Assembly: GCA_026416715.1 (NCBI GenBank)
Contig: JAOAEQ010000008.1
Location: 1-64,000, forward strand
Reading direction: 5' to 3'
DNA: 64,000 nt
Source of the DNA: a bacterium
GTDB lineage: Bacteria > UBP4 > UBA4092 > JAOAEQ01
Shown here: in pieces, positions 19,841 to 25,397 of the stretch
Layout: every line of letters starts with the position of its first letter
How positions within the stretch are numbered: the first letter of the stretch is position 1
Position numbers and translations under genes: made by a program
Notes under the pieces: generated by a model
Database searches by the model: none
Told to the model about the DNA's origin: nothing
Seen by the model: the letters and a program-made list of their open reading frames with translations, nothing else

Positions 19841-20144
19841 TATCCATAATAAATATTTAAATACCGCGAACGCGCTAGGTCGGAAATTTCATACAGGCTA
19901 ACAGCCTGTGGTACTGTAGCGGAGTCCTTGAGAGTAACGCCGCCTGTTAGGCGGTAGAGAATATAATTTGTATTTAAATTTACTTTACAGGCTGACAGCC
20001 TGCGGTACTATAGCTGAGTCCTTGAGAATAGCGCCGCCTGTTAGGCGGTGAAAGAGGATAAGGTGTATTTCAATGTCCTTTTACAGGTACCAGTGTGCGA
20101 AACCGTAGTTGAACAACCCTTGACTAACGCTGGTCCGAAAAAAT
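19841..20144. repeat. Tandem palindromic repeat array, left part (period about 94 bp)
   Basis: A 304-nt spacer carrying two copies of a two-part unit. Part A is CAGGCTRACAGCCTG in a 28-nt block at 19892-19919 and 19986-20013. Part B is the palindrome CCGCCTGTTAGGCGG within 19938-19954 and 20032-20048. A-to-A and B-to-B spacing is 94 nt. The joining sequence (ATAATTTGTATTTAAATTTACTT) is also shared with the right-hand array at 21946-22109. A partial A (TACAGGT) appears near 20090. No gene is seen. Function unknown. Confidence 0.8.
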
Positions 20145-21125
20145 ATGAACAGGGAAAATAAATATTTCCTATTCAATATTCTTCTATTCACGCTGATGTT
20201 ATCTAGGATAGCGATAAGTCAACAGACCGATAAACCGAGTTCAGATACGGCGCTATCGCGAGTTGCAGTAGTTGATTTTGAAGCTATCGGGAGCGGGGTT
20301 GACCGCGAGTTTGGCAAAGGAGTCGCAGAGATTTTATCTTCTGCGTTAATCAAATCGAAAAAATATCGTGTGATTGAACGGAGTGCGCTCTTGAAGGTGC
20401 TGAAAGAGCAGAAATTACAGATGACCGATTTAGTTGACACAAAAAGTGCGGTTGAAGTCGGGAAATTTCTCGGTGCAGAAACGATTGTTACCGGCAGTAT
20501 CATTAAAATGGGGAAAAGTTATACGTTAACCCCACGGTTTATTGACGTACAAACCGCAACCGCGAAAGAAAGCGAGAATTTAACCTGCACGAACGAAGAA
20601 GAAATACCACGGATGTGCAACCAAATCGTCGAGATTTTAATTGGCGAACGGCTGAAACCGAAATCAGTTACCTATCAGAAGGCTGGAGATTTGGAATTTG
20701 TTGACCAGAGTGCTGATGGTCGGTTTAAGGTTACCCGCGAGGGGATTATTCTGGATACGAGAACGGATTTAATGTGGGCACCAGACCCTGGCGGAGATAG
20801 AACGTGGTATCAAGCGAAAGAGTATGCCGAAAATCTGACGTTAGGCGGATATACTGACTGGCGACTCCCTACCAGAGCGGAATTAAAAGGATTGTATGAG
20901 CCATCGAAAGAGCATAAACCGTACGGGCACGAAGATTGGGGTTCTACAATAAAGATTGATCCGGTATTTAAGTTTAGCGGATATTGGGCGTGGAGTTCGG
21001 AATTATACGAAAGCGAAGGTTCTTCCGGTGCCTGGCTCTTGGACTTCGACGATGGCTACGAGGACTGGATCGACCGCGACGACTCCGACGGCGACAGAGT
21101 CTTGCCGGTCCGTTCCCGAAGGTAA
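20145..21125 (+). CDS. DGR variable protein: secreted CsgG-like domain fused to DUF1566 C-type-lectin fold
   Basis: A 326-residue protein with a signal peptide (about 1-26, no lipobox cysteine). A CsgG/LpoB-like domain follows (about 38-170: VAVVDFEAIG, YRVIERSALLKVLKEQ, AVEVGKFLGAETIVTGSI). The C-terminal DUF1566-type domain (about 185-326) has ILDTRTDLMWAPD, GGYTDWRLPTRAELKGL, GYWAWSSE and the terminal RVLPVRSRR; it belongs to the C-type-lectin fold used by diversity-generating retroelements. Residues 292-326 are encoded by the variable repeat: residues 298-317 (WLLDFDDGYEDWIDRDDSDGD region) are those matching Asn-rich template codons. Expected role: an exported ligand-binding protein with a diversifiable binding face. 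CsgG-like domains are not the commonest partner for such a module. No obvious ribosome site. Confidence 0.88.
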   Translation: MNRENKYFLFNILLFTLMLSRIAISQQTDKPSSDTALSRVAVVDFEAIGSGVDREFGKGVAEILSSALIKSKKYRVIERSALLKVLKEQKLQMTDLVDTKSAVEVGKFLGAETIVTGSIIKMGKSYTLTPRFIDVQTATAKESENLTCTNEEEIPRMCNQIVEILIGERLKPKSVTYQKAGDLEFVDQSADGRFKVTREGIILDTRTDLMWAPDPGGDRTWYQAKEYAENLTLGGYTDWRLPTRAELKGLYEPSKEHKPYGHEDWGSTIKIDPVFKFSGYWAWSSELYESEGSSGAWLLDFDDGYEDWIDRDDSDGDRVLPVRSRR

Positions 21126-21206
21126 TATTGGTTATTTGGTTATTTGAATCTTTGATTATTTGAGGTTTTGGGGAGTCCAGAGGGGTTTACCCCTCTGGAC
21201 GCGAAA
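21016..21206 (+). repeat. DGR variable repeat (VR) with IMH-like end and 3' hairpin
   Basis: This 191-bp stretch is homologous to 21751-21941 at a constant offset of 735 nt. It covers the last 36 codons of the target gene, including stop, and 81 nt of 3' sequence. Through codon 25 from the GGT at 21018, every difference from the template is at a template adenine. In codons 7-26 there are 15 changes at 27 adenines: 11 A-to-G, 3 A-to-T, 1 A-to-C. Codons 26-33 carry seven non-adenine differences, like the IMH/IMH* polymorphism of known DGRs. The 3' flank has three differences. Homology starts abruptly at 21016. Confidence 0.93.
21175..21200 (+). other. Perfect hairpin downstream of VR
   Basis: An 11-bp perfect inverted repeat, GTCCAGAGGGG / CCCCTCTGGAC, with loop TTTA, 49 nt past the target stop codon and just before the Avd start. 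In the Bordetella phage DGR a hairpin or cruciform shortly downstream of the VR is needed for efficient target recognition; position and form here match that role (inference). The template copy (21910-21935) has one A-C mismatch in the stem. It could also attenuate transcription, but no U-run is adjacent apart from ATTTTTTT 4 nt later. Confidence 0.7.
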
Positions 21207-21227
21207 TTTTTTTATAGGGAAAAGAAC

Positions 21228-21611
21228 ATGGCACAATATGAACATCTCCAGATATATAAATCCACATTTGATTTACTGGTTTACTTTGAGAAAATAGTCA
21301 GGAATTTCAGCCGATATAATAAATATACTCACGGTTCAGCGCTAAGGAATATTACCCGAGATATCCTGCTATTGATTATTCGCGCAAATAACAGTTATGA
21401 TAAAAAACCGGTTCTAGAAGAAATCCGGCTAAAACTCGAAGAGTTAAAACAGGTGATTCACGTTTGTAAAGAGCTACAGGTATTTCCCAATTTCAATTCA
21501 TTTCAAACTAGTATTAATCAAGTAATCGAGATTGCGAAACAGAACGAGGGATGGCTCAAACATTCTTCGACTCGAGGGAATCGGTCTGAATCACAACCCA
21601 ATCCTCATTAA
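21228..21611 (+). CDS. avd: DGR accessory protein, bAvd family (four-helix bundle)
   Basis: A 127-residue basic, all-helical protein with the bAvd pattern: EHLQIYKSTFDLLVYFEKIV, FSRYNKYTHGSALRN, ILLLIIRANNSYDKKP, LEEIRLKLEELKQVIHVCKE and the C-terminal FPNFNSFQTSINQ...KQNEGWLK block. Avd forms a pentameric barrel that binds the DGR reverse transcriptase and template RNA and is needed for mutagenic homing. Length equals typical Avd. The ATG at 21228 has an AGGGA site 7 nt upstream. Upstream in-frame codons overlap the VR hairpin and are not credible. It lies between VR and TR, a common DGR gene order. No reverse transcriptase gene follows. Confidence 0.9.
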   Translation: MAQYEHLQIYKSTFDLLVYFEKIVRNFSRYNKYTHGSALRNITRDILLLIIRANNSYDKKPVLEEIRLKLEELKQVIHVCKELQVFPNFNSFQTSINQVIEIAKQNEGWLKHSSTRGNRSESQPNPH

Positions 21612-21714
21612 AGGTAGGAATGTGAGCGAGCCAAGTAACATTACCTTGTCCTTCCCGCCCAGGTGGCATAGATATTCAGGAAATGGTATCCGAAACGGAC
21701 TCGATTTCCGATGG

Positions 21715-21735
21715 CTAGCCGGGTATTCCGGCTAG
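21715..21735 (+). other. Hairpin between avd and template repeat
   Basis: An 8-bp perfect stem CTAGCCGG / CCGGCTAG with loop GTATT lies 16 nt before the template repeat, inside the non-coding avd-TR spacer (21612-21750). It would be part of the 5' end of a template RNA if transcription reads through from avd. It may equally be a palindromic repeat copy; the variant GGCTATTAGCC recurs at 22045-22055. No gene is visible in the spacer. Confidence 0.5.
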
Positions 21736-21750
21736 GAAGTGGAAGGAAAA

Positions 21751-21941
21751 AAGGTTCTTCCGGTGCCTGGAACTTAAACTTCAACAATGGCAACGAGAAC
21801 TGGAACAACCGCGACAACTCCAACAACAATCGGGTGTTGGCTGTCCGTTTCCGAAGGTAATATTGGTTATTTGGTTATTTGAATCTTTGATTGTTTGAGG
21901 TTTTGGGAAGTCCAGAAGGGTTTACCCCTCTGGACGCGAAA
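21751..21941 (+). repeat. DGR template repeat (TR)
   Basis: A non-coding 191-bp copy of the VR. Read in the VR frame its core would encode Asn-rich peptide with 12 AAY codons (for example NLNFNNGNENW then NNRDNSNNN), the hallmark of DGR templates. AAY randomised at both adenines gives 15 amino acids and no stop codon. Only this block and its 3' flank are homologous to the target gene; sequence 5' of 21751 is unrelated to the gene body, which argues against a truncated gene duplication. The copy contains its own imperfect hairpin (21910-21935) and abuts the palindromic array at 21946. Confidence 0.93.
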
Positions 21942-21945
21942 GTAA

Positions 21946-22109
21946 CGCCGCCTGTTAGGCGGTGACAGAGTATAATTTGTATTTAAATTTACTTTACAGG
22001 CTGACAGCCTGTGGTACTGTAGTTGAATACTTGAGAGTAGCGCCGGCTATTAGCCGATATCATAGTTCAATTTTATTTACTTTTTTTACAGGCTGACAGC
22101 CTGCGGTAC
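21946..22109. repeat. Tandem palindromic repeat array, right part
   Basis: Continuation of the array left of the DGR cassette: part B (21946-21962), part A (21995-22022), a degenerate B (GGCTATTAGCC at 22045-22055) and part A again (22087-22109). The A-to-A distance is 92 nt. The block 21946-22022 matches 19938-20013 almost exactly (41 identical nt in the middle, about 3 substitutions and one indel overall), so the cassette is bounded by direct repeats about 2.0 kb apart. Confidence 0.8.
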
Positions 22110-22138
22110 GATCCTGAAATTTTTCGGGTTAACCTTAT

Positions 22139-22768
22139 TTGAACCCACCAGCTAAACTCCGTAAACCTGATTGGAATGCGTATCTGGAAGAAATATCTTC
22201 CCGTAAACTCGAATCGTTCTATCATTATACTCCGATAAAAAACCTCCCGCAAATATTATCTGCTGGCGGAATCTATAGTCGGCATCAGGCACGGTTACGA
22301 AATATTCAGCCGATAGAAATCCACGGATGGGGTGATAAATGGAAAGAACTCGAAGATTATATCTGTTTAAGTTTAGTTCCGCCGAGATGGATGCTGGATA
22401 AGAGCACCGAGCAATATTTAGCGCTGGCGATACAACCGTATGTCGCCGGATATCAAGGCACACTGTTTTCGTTGCGCAGTAGCGCAAGTATCGAAGTTAA
22501 TGTAGTCGTATTAAAATCGCAGGATACAATTGACGATTTCGTTCGGTTATTTCGTAATCCGGATGAACCGAACCCGAAAAATCGATTATCAGAAATTCTG
22601 GTTGAAGATTTTATCCCGATATCGGATATACAGGCGATATATCTACCGACGTGGAAAGGTAACATACGCTACTTCTGGGTCTGGTTATTCAAAAAATGGA
22701 GTAATTTCCCTCGGTATGGTTTCTCCTACCCACCATTATTCGTTGACCCAAACAAGAAGTTATTCTAA
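22139..22768 (+). CDS. DarT-like ADP-ribosyltransferase-fold protein
   Basis: A 209-residue soluble protein resembling DarT/DUF4433 enzymes, which ADP-ribosylate thymidine in single-stranded DNA. It has the N-terminal block FYHYTPIKNLPQILSAGGIYSR (28-49 region), the strand DYICLSLVPPRWM, and LSEILVEDFIP, where Glu152 fits the catalytic Glu of the AEVLV-type DarT motif. An in-frame TAA lies three codons before the TTG at 22139 and no ATG precedes the conserved block, so a TTG start is likely. No macrodomain (DarG) antitoxin gene is adjacent. The NAD-binding residues cannot be confirmed by eye, so activity is uncertain. It lies in the DGR island. Confidence 0.5.
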   Translation: MNPPAKLRKPDWNAYLEEISSRKLESFYHYTPIKNLPQILSAGGIYSRHQARLRNIQPIEIHGWGDKWKELEDYICLSLVPPRWMLDKSTEQYLALAIQPYVAGYQGTLFSLRSSASIEVNVVVLKSQDTIDDFVRLFRNPDEPNPKNRLSEILVEDFIPISDIQAIYLPTWKGNIRYFWVWLFKKWSNFPRYGFSYPPLFVDPNKKLF

Positions 22769-24437: not shown

Positions 24438-25397
24438 ATGAAAATAACATATCGAAATATTGTTTGTTTGCTTATCAGCATTGTATTTCTATTCAGCTGG
24501 GCTAACAGCGCGCGCGATTCCGTTCAGGAATTATCCAACCGGATTCAGGAGCAATCAGCGAATACGCAAAATAGTCTGCTGAATTATCAGCTCTGCTACG
24601 ATATTTCACGAGCATGGTGGTCGGTATACGAACCGGAATTAGCGCTCGATTTTTTATACGCTGCAGCTAAAGAAGCGGAATTGATGAACCCGGCGACCCT
24701 TTCCGCAATGAAACTGCTCGAATTAGCGAAACTTGCTACTCGGGAATACCGCGACCGGTCAACCGCAGAAGAAATGATACAACGCGCTCGCGACCGGATG
24801 CGACTTATTCTCGATTATTATGAATGGCGGATTCCCTATCGTGAAGCGAATCGGATTGAAAAAGAAGCGCAACGGTTGCAGTATCTCCCTCGCGGGAAAT
24901 ATATCCCGCGACCGGTAACGCTACCGGTGCCAGTCCAGCGAGATGTAATGCCAGGGTTCCCACCGGGAGATATTGTTCCGCAACAAGCACAAGTTGACCG
25001 AATTTATCCCACAACTCCACGACCGGAAACACCGCTGAATCCGATATTGCCGCCAAATAAACCGGATAAACCGCAAAAACCGCCACAGTTGGCAGAGAGA
25101 CCGGATAAACCGGATAAACCGTCGTTACCGCCGAAACCACCTCAACCGCCGGATAAGCCCGAGAAACCCGATAAACCGCCGCTGCCGCCAAAACCGCCGG
25201 ATAAACCAGAGGTGCCAAAACCGCCGAAACCACCAGATAAACCTGATAATCCACCCCAACCGCCGGATAGACCGAAACCGCCGCAGCCACCAAAACCACC
25301 GGATGTACCTGATAAACCGAAACCGCCGCAGCTACCGGATAGACCGCCGTTACCACCAAGACTGCCAAGCTCGGATACGACACGAGTTGGTAACTAG
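24438..25397 (+). CDS. Secreted protein with Pro-Asp-Lys repeat tail
   Basis: This 319-residue protein is not recognised as a family. A signal peptide (about 1-24, SIVFLFSWANSA) is followed by a helical, charged domain (about 25-145). Then comes a long low-complexity tail (about 150-315) of irregular PDKP, PPKPP and PEKP units. The tail is expected to be an extended, unstructured stretch like those that span the cell wall or periplasm. The tail is the source of a long spurious reverse-strand open frame. Confidence 0.65.
   Translation: MKITYRNIVCLLISIVFLFSWANSARDSVQELSNRIQEQSANTQNSLLNYQLCYDISRAWWSVYEPELALDFLYAAAKEAELMNPATLSAMKLLELAKLATREYRDRSTAEEMIQRARDRMRLILDYYEWRIPYREANRIEKEAQRLQYLPRGKYIPRPVTLPVPVQRDVMPGFPPGDIVPQQAQVDRIYPTTPRPETPLNPILPPNKPDKPQKPPQLAERPDKPDKPSLPPKPPQPPDKPEKPDKPPLPPKPPDKPEVPKPPKPPDKPDNPPQPPDRPKPPQPPKPPDVPDKPKPPQLPDRPPLPPRLPSSDTTRVGN

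What the first reader, a model, noticed from the sequence alone, without database searches (positions are those of the whole stretch)
20145..21941. Diversity-generating retroelement: target gene, avd and template repeat
A non-coding block (21751-21941) copies the end of the 20145-21125 gene at a fixed 735-nt offset. Hand alignment over codons 1-25 of the repeat shows differences only at template adenines. Across codons 7-26, 15 of 27 adenines are changed (11 to G, 3 to T, 1 to C). The template has 12 AAY codons; a bAvd-family gene lies between the two repeats; and the target ends in a DUF1566-type lectin fold. Adenine-specific change plus Avd plus CLec target is the DGR signature. Twelve AAY codons alone allow roughly 10^14 protein variants.
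Basis: partly seen in the sequence, partly recalled or inferred. Interest (0 to 1): 0.95.

Follow-up and report, generated by a model that had tools for sequence, protein, structure and literature searches.

The report
DGR cassette with distant reverse transcriptase
This is a genuine bacterial protein-diversifying cassette (target gene, Avd helper gene and mutation template), but its reverse transcriptase is not beside it: the genome's only reverse-transcriptase gene, fused to a mismatch-binding domain, lies about 100,000 bases away and probably acts on it from there.

Summary
VR (21016-21122) and TR (21751-21857) differ at 15 sites in their first 79 nt, all at TR adenines (hypergeometric p = 1.4e-8). 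Avd (21228-21611) matches bAvd; the target is CsgG-like plus Lcl_C/DUF1566. A DarT-like gene and dapA follow the TR; dapF-dapA are adjacent in the nearest relative, so the cassette is an insertion. The only RT gene in the 2.96-Mb genome lies 100 kb away, at a contig end. It is DGR-type (GLPIGNLTSQ, YVDD) with a C-terminal MutS domain I. Its 55-57% identical homologues in two MAGs lie beside a TR (one also beside Avd). Between Avd and TR sits an RNA leader whose fold is kept by compensatory changes, placed like Rfam RT-15 in phage DGRs but unlisted. Best reading: an RT-less DGR cassette served in trans by the distant RT-MutS. Rivals: RT loss with decay, or a second template unit lost at the contig break. 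DGRs, remote targets, RT-less loci and MutS-like accessories are all known; the combination is a new variant. Activity was not shown (no reads).

The parts
20145..21125 (+). Target gene: CsgG-like N-terminal half, C-terminal Lcl_C (DUF1566) domain that carries the VR
   Evidence: PF03783 4.1e-13, PF07603 1.5e-17; only copy in the genome
21016..21094 (+). Variable repeat (VR), part with adenine-specific changes
   Evidence: 15 of 15 differences at TR adenines, p = 1.4e-8
21095..21115 (+). 3' zone of VR with 7 non-A differences, read as the IMH zone that the cDNA does not overwrite
   Evidence: the reading as IMH is inference
21175..21200 (+). Hairpin downstream of VR: 11-bp stem, 4-nt loop (TTTA)
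   Evidence: similar hairpins are needed for target recognition in BPP-1 (PMC3240598); loop does not fit the GRNA consensus
21228..21611 (+). avd gene, 127 aa
   Evidence: PF22296, NF033474, phrog_3206; 53% and 48% identical to Avd of L060 and L061
21649..21747 (+). Structured RNA leader: outer stem around three hairpins, between avd and TR
   Evidence: Same fold in window, L060 and L061; 6 of 7 outer-stem pairs with compensatory change
21751..21857 (+). Template repeat (TR), 12 AAY codons in the target frame
   Evidence: only TR in the genome
21910..21935 (+). Copy of the VR hairpin after the TR, with one broken pair
   Evidence: repeat pair extends to 21941
19864..20047 (+). Two palindromic repeat units (about 94-nt period) before the target gene
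21967..22110 (+). Two palindromic repeat units (about 92-nt period) after the TR, where the RT gene lies in relatives
22139..22768 (+). DarT-like gene, 209 aa, inserted together with the cassette relative to G001
   Evidence: PF14487 1.3e-9; absent between dapF and dapA in G001

Best explanation
The locus is a DGR cassette that carries its own target (VR), target-site hairpin, Avd and template RNA (structured leader plus TR) but not its reverse transcriptase. It sits as an insertion between dapF and dapA. Shown: adenine-specific VR/TR divergence, an intact avd, a leader fold kept by compensatory changes, one DGR-type RT gene in the genome 100 kb away with intact catalytic motifs and a MutS domain I, and homologues of that RT beside TR (and, in one case, Avd) in other genomes. 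Inferred: the distant RT-MutS protein is supplied in trans, binds Avd and the leader-TR RNA, copies TR with errors at adenines, and the cDNA replaces the VR up to the zone of non-A differences, with the hairpin marking the target. Inferred and weaker: the MutS domain binds the mismatched cDNA:VR duplex, favouring integration or keeping host repair off.
For: Adenine-only changes over 79 nt. No second TR, VR, Avd or RT in the genome. RT homologues at 55-57% identity next to the same kind of leader, TR and Avd in L060, and next to TR in L077. Leader fold kept by compensatory change and placed like RT-15 in phage DGRs. Dispersed targets away from the RT in G098 and G100, which have the same RT type. 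Action in trans on RT-less loci was inferred for Thiohalocapsa PB-PSB1 (PMC10907252).
Against: No read data, so no proof that VR is being diversified now. The RT start is cut by the contig end, so its own neighbours are unknown. Seven non-A differences in 21 nt at the 3' end of VR could also mean that homing has not happened for some time. Pairing of this RT with this cassette rests on homology and on its being the only RT in the assembly.
Confidence: 0.55

Rival explanations
1. A DGR that lost its RT at this locus, with palindromic (MITE-like) repeats now standing there, and that is now silent; the adenine-specific pattern is a fossil of past diversification.
For: Repeat units stand right after the TR, where relatives have the RT. 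Arrays of MITE-like repeats replaced the RT at Thiohalocapsa DGR 4 and 5 (PMC10907252). Seven non-A differences in the 3' zone.
Against: avd has no disruption, the leader keeps its fold, and no non-A difference has built up among the other 50 positions of the first 79 nt. In PB-PSB1, DGR 4 and 5 were still diversified.
Confidence: 0.22
2. The RT has its own Avd-TR unit just beyond the contig break, missing from the bin, and the window cassette is a second, older or satellite unit. The RT then serves mainly its local unit.
For: TR abuts the RT start in L077 and the contig breaks within a few bases of the RT start. Other contigs in this lineage also break in VR, TR or avd.
Against: No second TR, VR or Avd is in a bin rated 100% complete; no contig shares the RT end.
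Confidence: 0.16
3. Mis-assembly or a recent inversion: the real order is cassette-RT, and the 22-123 kb segment is turned round.
For: The RT lies on the minus strand with its start at the far contig end, just where an inversion with one breakpoint between TR and RT would put it; palindromic repeats lie at the near breakpoint.
Against: The assembled order lysA-dapF-(cassette)-dapA-tdk matches the relative G001; a mis-join would not recreate that order.
Confidence: 0.07

Closest known systems
Bordetella phage BPP-1 DGR (mtd-avd-TR-brt)
   Same: Order target-hairpin-avd-TR, adenine-specific VR, bAvd-family helper, related RT (best PDB sequence match of the distant RT is 8ub7; that this is the BPP-1 RT is my own knowledge)
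   Different: RT not at the locus; structured RNA lies 5' of the TR, whereas in BPP-1 the bRT-Avd binding RNA is the spacer 3' of the TR (PMC12875486); RT carries a MutS domain I; target is Lcl_C type
RT-less DGR loci of Thiohalocapsa sp. PB-PSB1 (DGR 4 and 5; PMC10907252)
   Same: RT missing and repeat arrays in its place; action in trans proposed
   Different: Those VRs match the TR of another locus (DGR 2); here the cassette has its own TR and Avd, the only ones found in the genome
RT-MutS DGR of Candidatus Brocadiia MAG_51 (L060, JABWCH010000441.1) and of G100 (L077)
   Same: Same RT type with MutS domain I, same kind of leader and TR; Avd in L060
   Different: TR and RT adjacent there; hosts belong to another lineage
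Rfam RT-15 RNA (RF03018) in phage DGRs
   Same: Lies between avd and TR; outer stem around three inner hairpins
   Different: Window leader has no match to it or to any Rfam family
MSL accessory of DGRs (PF01624, MutS domain I; PMC10053308)
   Same: MutS domain I linked to DGRs
   Different: Here it is the C-terminal domain of the RT itself; whether earlier work already described fused forms could not be read

Membership tests
Diversity-generating retroelement | Two near-identical repeats, one at the 3' end of a gene, differing at template adenines | tested here: met
   15 of 15 in the first 79 nt, p = 1.4e-8
Diversity-generating retroelement | Accessory protein of the Avd family | tested here: met
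   PF22296 above cut-off, phrog_3206 9.5e-24
Diversity-generating retroelement | C-type-lectin-like target domain | tested here: met
   Lcl_C (DUF1566) 1.5e-17; that this domain has the CLec fold is established knowledge, not tested
Diversity-generating retroelement | DGR-type reverse transcriptase at the same locus | tested here: not met
   No RT in the window; only RT of the genome 100 kb away
Diversity-generating retroelement | DGR-type reverse transcriptase in the genome | tested here: met
   GLPIGNLTSQ and YVDD, apart from QG..SP-type RTs; homologues beside TR/Avd/VR
Diversity-generating retroelement | Hairpin or cruciform downstream of VR | tested here: met
   11-bp stem, 4-nt loop at 21175-21200; loop TTTA is not GRNA
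Diversity-generating retroelement | Ongoing adenine-specific diversification of VR | not testable with these tools
   No reads on hand
Rfam RT-15 RNA | Match to RF03018 at or near its gathering score | tested here: not met
   No match; only position and layout are alike
MutS domain I (RT C-terminus) | Pfam PF01624 above cut-off and MutS fold | tested here: met
   32.6 bits against a cut-off of 20.6; Foldseek MutS, TMq up to 0.61, on a model of moderate confidence

The most novel reading that the evidence does not exclude
A self-contained satellite DGR cassette (target, hairpin, Avd, structured guide RNA and template, but no RT) that moves as a unit and borrows one RT-MutS enzyme encoded far away. 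Such cassettes would be missed by searches that require the RT near a repeat.
Probability: 0.35. Interest if true: 0.65.

Novelty: new variant of a known kind. Interest (0 to 1): 0.5.

Why it matters
The largest DGR survey started from RT genes within 1 kb of a repeat and states that it cannot see DGRs acting on remote targets (PMC8144416). A cassette with everything but the RT suggests that such surveys undercount DGR loci, and it gives a natural test of whether a DGR RT works in trans on a complete template unit. The RT fused to a mismatch-binding domain raises a testable question: how do mismatched cDNA:target duplexes escape repair? The conserved leader RNA gives a second handle, besides RT, for finding RT-less cassettes.

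Tried and rejected
Second TR, VR, Avd or Lcl_C target elsewhere in the genome: none. Another contig overlapping the RT end of C8: none. Rfam match for the leader: none. More leader copies in viral contigs by pattern: only L061 again. Avd and one RT query in viral contigs: no relatives. Inversion or mis-join as the cause of the split: set aside because the dapF-dapA order matches G001. The hairpin as an intrinsic terminator: not found by the scan. The RT tree has long branches and weak deep support; it is used only for the split from QG..SP-type RTs and for the L001-L060-L077 group (94/97). The MAFFT alignment of the leaders misplaces the 3' part, so stems were compared by hand.

Full report
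Observation. The repeat pair is real: 21016-21206 and 21751-21941, offset 735 nt, 87% identical. In the first 79 nt there are 15 differences, all at TR adenines (11 A>G, 3 A>T, 1 A>C; hypergeometric p = 1.4e-8); none falls at a VR adenine. All 12 AAY codons of the TR carry at least one change in VR. The next 21 nt hold 7 non-A differences, after which the copies are nearly identical for 91 nt, including a hairpin. The VR keeps the PVRS ending seen in related Lcl_C targets (L061), while the TR reads AVRF. I read this zone as the part of VR that the cDNA does not overwrite (inference).

Genes. Avd at 21228-21611 is supported by three profile libraries and by 53% and 48% identity to Avd proteins of L060 and L061. 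The target has a CsgG-like N-terminal half and a C-terminal Lcl_C (formerly DUF1566) domain. No other gene in the genome matches its Lcl_C region.

No RT at the locus. A search of the whole 2.96-Mb genome finds one RT gene, at G000:C8:121860-123337 on the minus strand, 100 kb from the TR. The contig ends within a few bases of its start. The window locus instead continues with two palindromic repeat units, a DarT-like gene and dapA. In the nearest relative, G001, dapF and dapA are about 100 bp apart within lysA-dapF-dapA-tdk. The cassette with the DarT-like gene is therefore an insertion relative to G001, and a mis-join is unlikely to have recreated the ancestral order on both sides.

The RT. 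It has GLPIGNLTSQ in motif 4 and YVDD, and in a small tree it falls apart from four QG..SP-type RTs. Its best sequence match in the PDB is 8ub7, 'Reverse transcriptase'; that this is the BPP-1 RT is my own knowledge. Its closest relatives are L060 (Candidatus Brocadiia MAG_51, 55% identical) and L077 (57%). In L060 the order is VR end, hairpin, Avd, leader, TR, RT. In L077 the TR abuts the RT start codon. So this RT type belongs with this Avd and TR type, which is the ground for pairing the distant RT with the window cassette. All three RTs carry a C-terminal MutS domain I: Pfam matches in all three when the C-termini are scanned alone, Taq MutS leads a PDB profile search, and MutS proteins fill the top 50 Foldseek rows for a model of moderate confidence (mean pLDDT 64). 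The window's RT has F-Y-E (WFYEMY) where relatives have Y-L-E; in MutS this place holds the FxE mismatch-reading motif (general knowledge). MutS_I (MSL) is a recognised DGR accessory (PMC10053308), so the link is not new; whether its fusion to the RT has been described I could not establish.

The leader RNA. Between Avd and TR the window, L060 and L061 align and fold alike: an outer stem around three hairpins. Six of the seven outer-stem pairs show a compensatory change in at least one relative, and all 21 cells pair. The stems were chosen by eye from the individual folds and only three sequences were available, so this is good but not exhaustive evidence; folding energy alone is unremarkable in L060 (z 0.07) and moderate in the window (z -2.6). 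Two phage DGRs have Rfam RT-15 RNA in the same place. The window leader matches no Rfam family.

Dispersed targets in relatives. G098 and G100, which carry the RT-MutS type, have Lcl_C genes on other contigs that align with their TRs with an excess of adenine differences (L092: 16 non-A and 21 A; L093: 17 and 19; L097: 18 and 19). Downstream of L092 and L093 lie avd sequences: in L092 cut by the contig end, in L093 truncated. G036 has two similar partial avd copies at contig ends and no RT match. This fits a lineage that spreads targets with downstream pieces and acts on them from elsewhere (inference).

Mechanism and rivals. That this is a real DGR cassette is near certain. The most likely working is that it is served in trans by the distant RT-MutS (0.55). 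RT loss with decay (0.22) is favoured by the palindromic repeats standing where the RT should be, a situation described for Thiohalocapsa DGR 4 and 5 (PMC10907252). A second complete unit beyond the contig break (0.16) cannot be excluded. An inversion or mis-join (0.07) is disfavoured by synteny.

Novelty. DGRs, remote targets, RT-less loci and MutS-like accessories are all known. The combination of a complete Avd-leader-TR-VR unit without RT, a single distant RT fused to MutS domain I, and an unlisted leader RNA is a new variant. Activity is not shown.

Noticed in passing
window 22139-22768: DarT-like gene (ssDNA ADP-ribosyltransferase family) right after the cassette, with no recognised DarG antitoxin gene beside it; absent between dapF and dapA in G001.
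   Followed up: partly
window 19864-20047 and 21967-22110: Palindromic repeat units of about 92-94 nt in tandem pairs on both sides of the cassette; 4 of the 8 genome matches to their core are here.
   Followed up: partly
L022 15201-18360: The distant RT gene is followed by a cluster of LPP20-type and FlgT-like genes; the window target has a CsgG-like half, so the two loci may share a cell-envelope theme.
   Followed up: no
L047 1-300 and L050 1501-1757 (G036): Two partial avd copies at contig ends with a VR-side hairpin like the window's (GTCCAGAGGGG...CCCCTCTGG), in a genome without an RT match at 1e-10.
   Followed up: partly
L060 808-830: After the TR, ATGGCTTCTTAC resembles the RT start of L077 (ATGGCTTCACTTTTTACC), as if a piece of an older RT start were left there.
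   Followed up: no
window 24438-25397: Protein with a long proline-rich repeat tail (PPKPPDKPD units).
   Followed up: no
L092, L096, L099 (G100) and L100 (G098): Several Lcl_C genes lie close to contig ends, as if assembly broke at their variable repeats.
   Followed up: no
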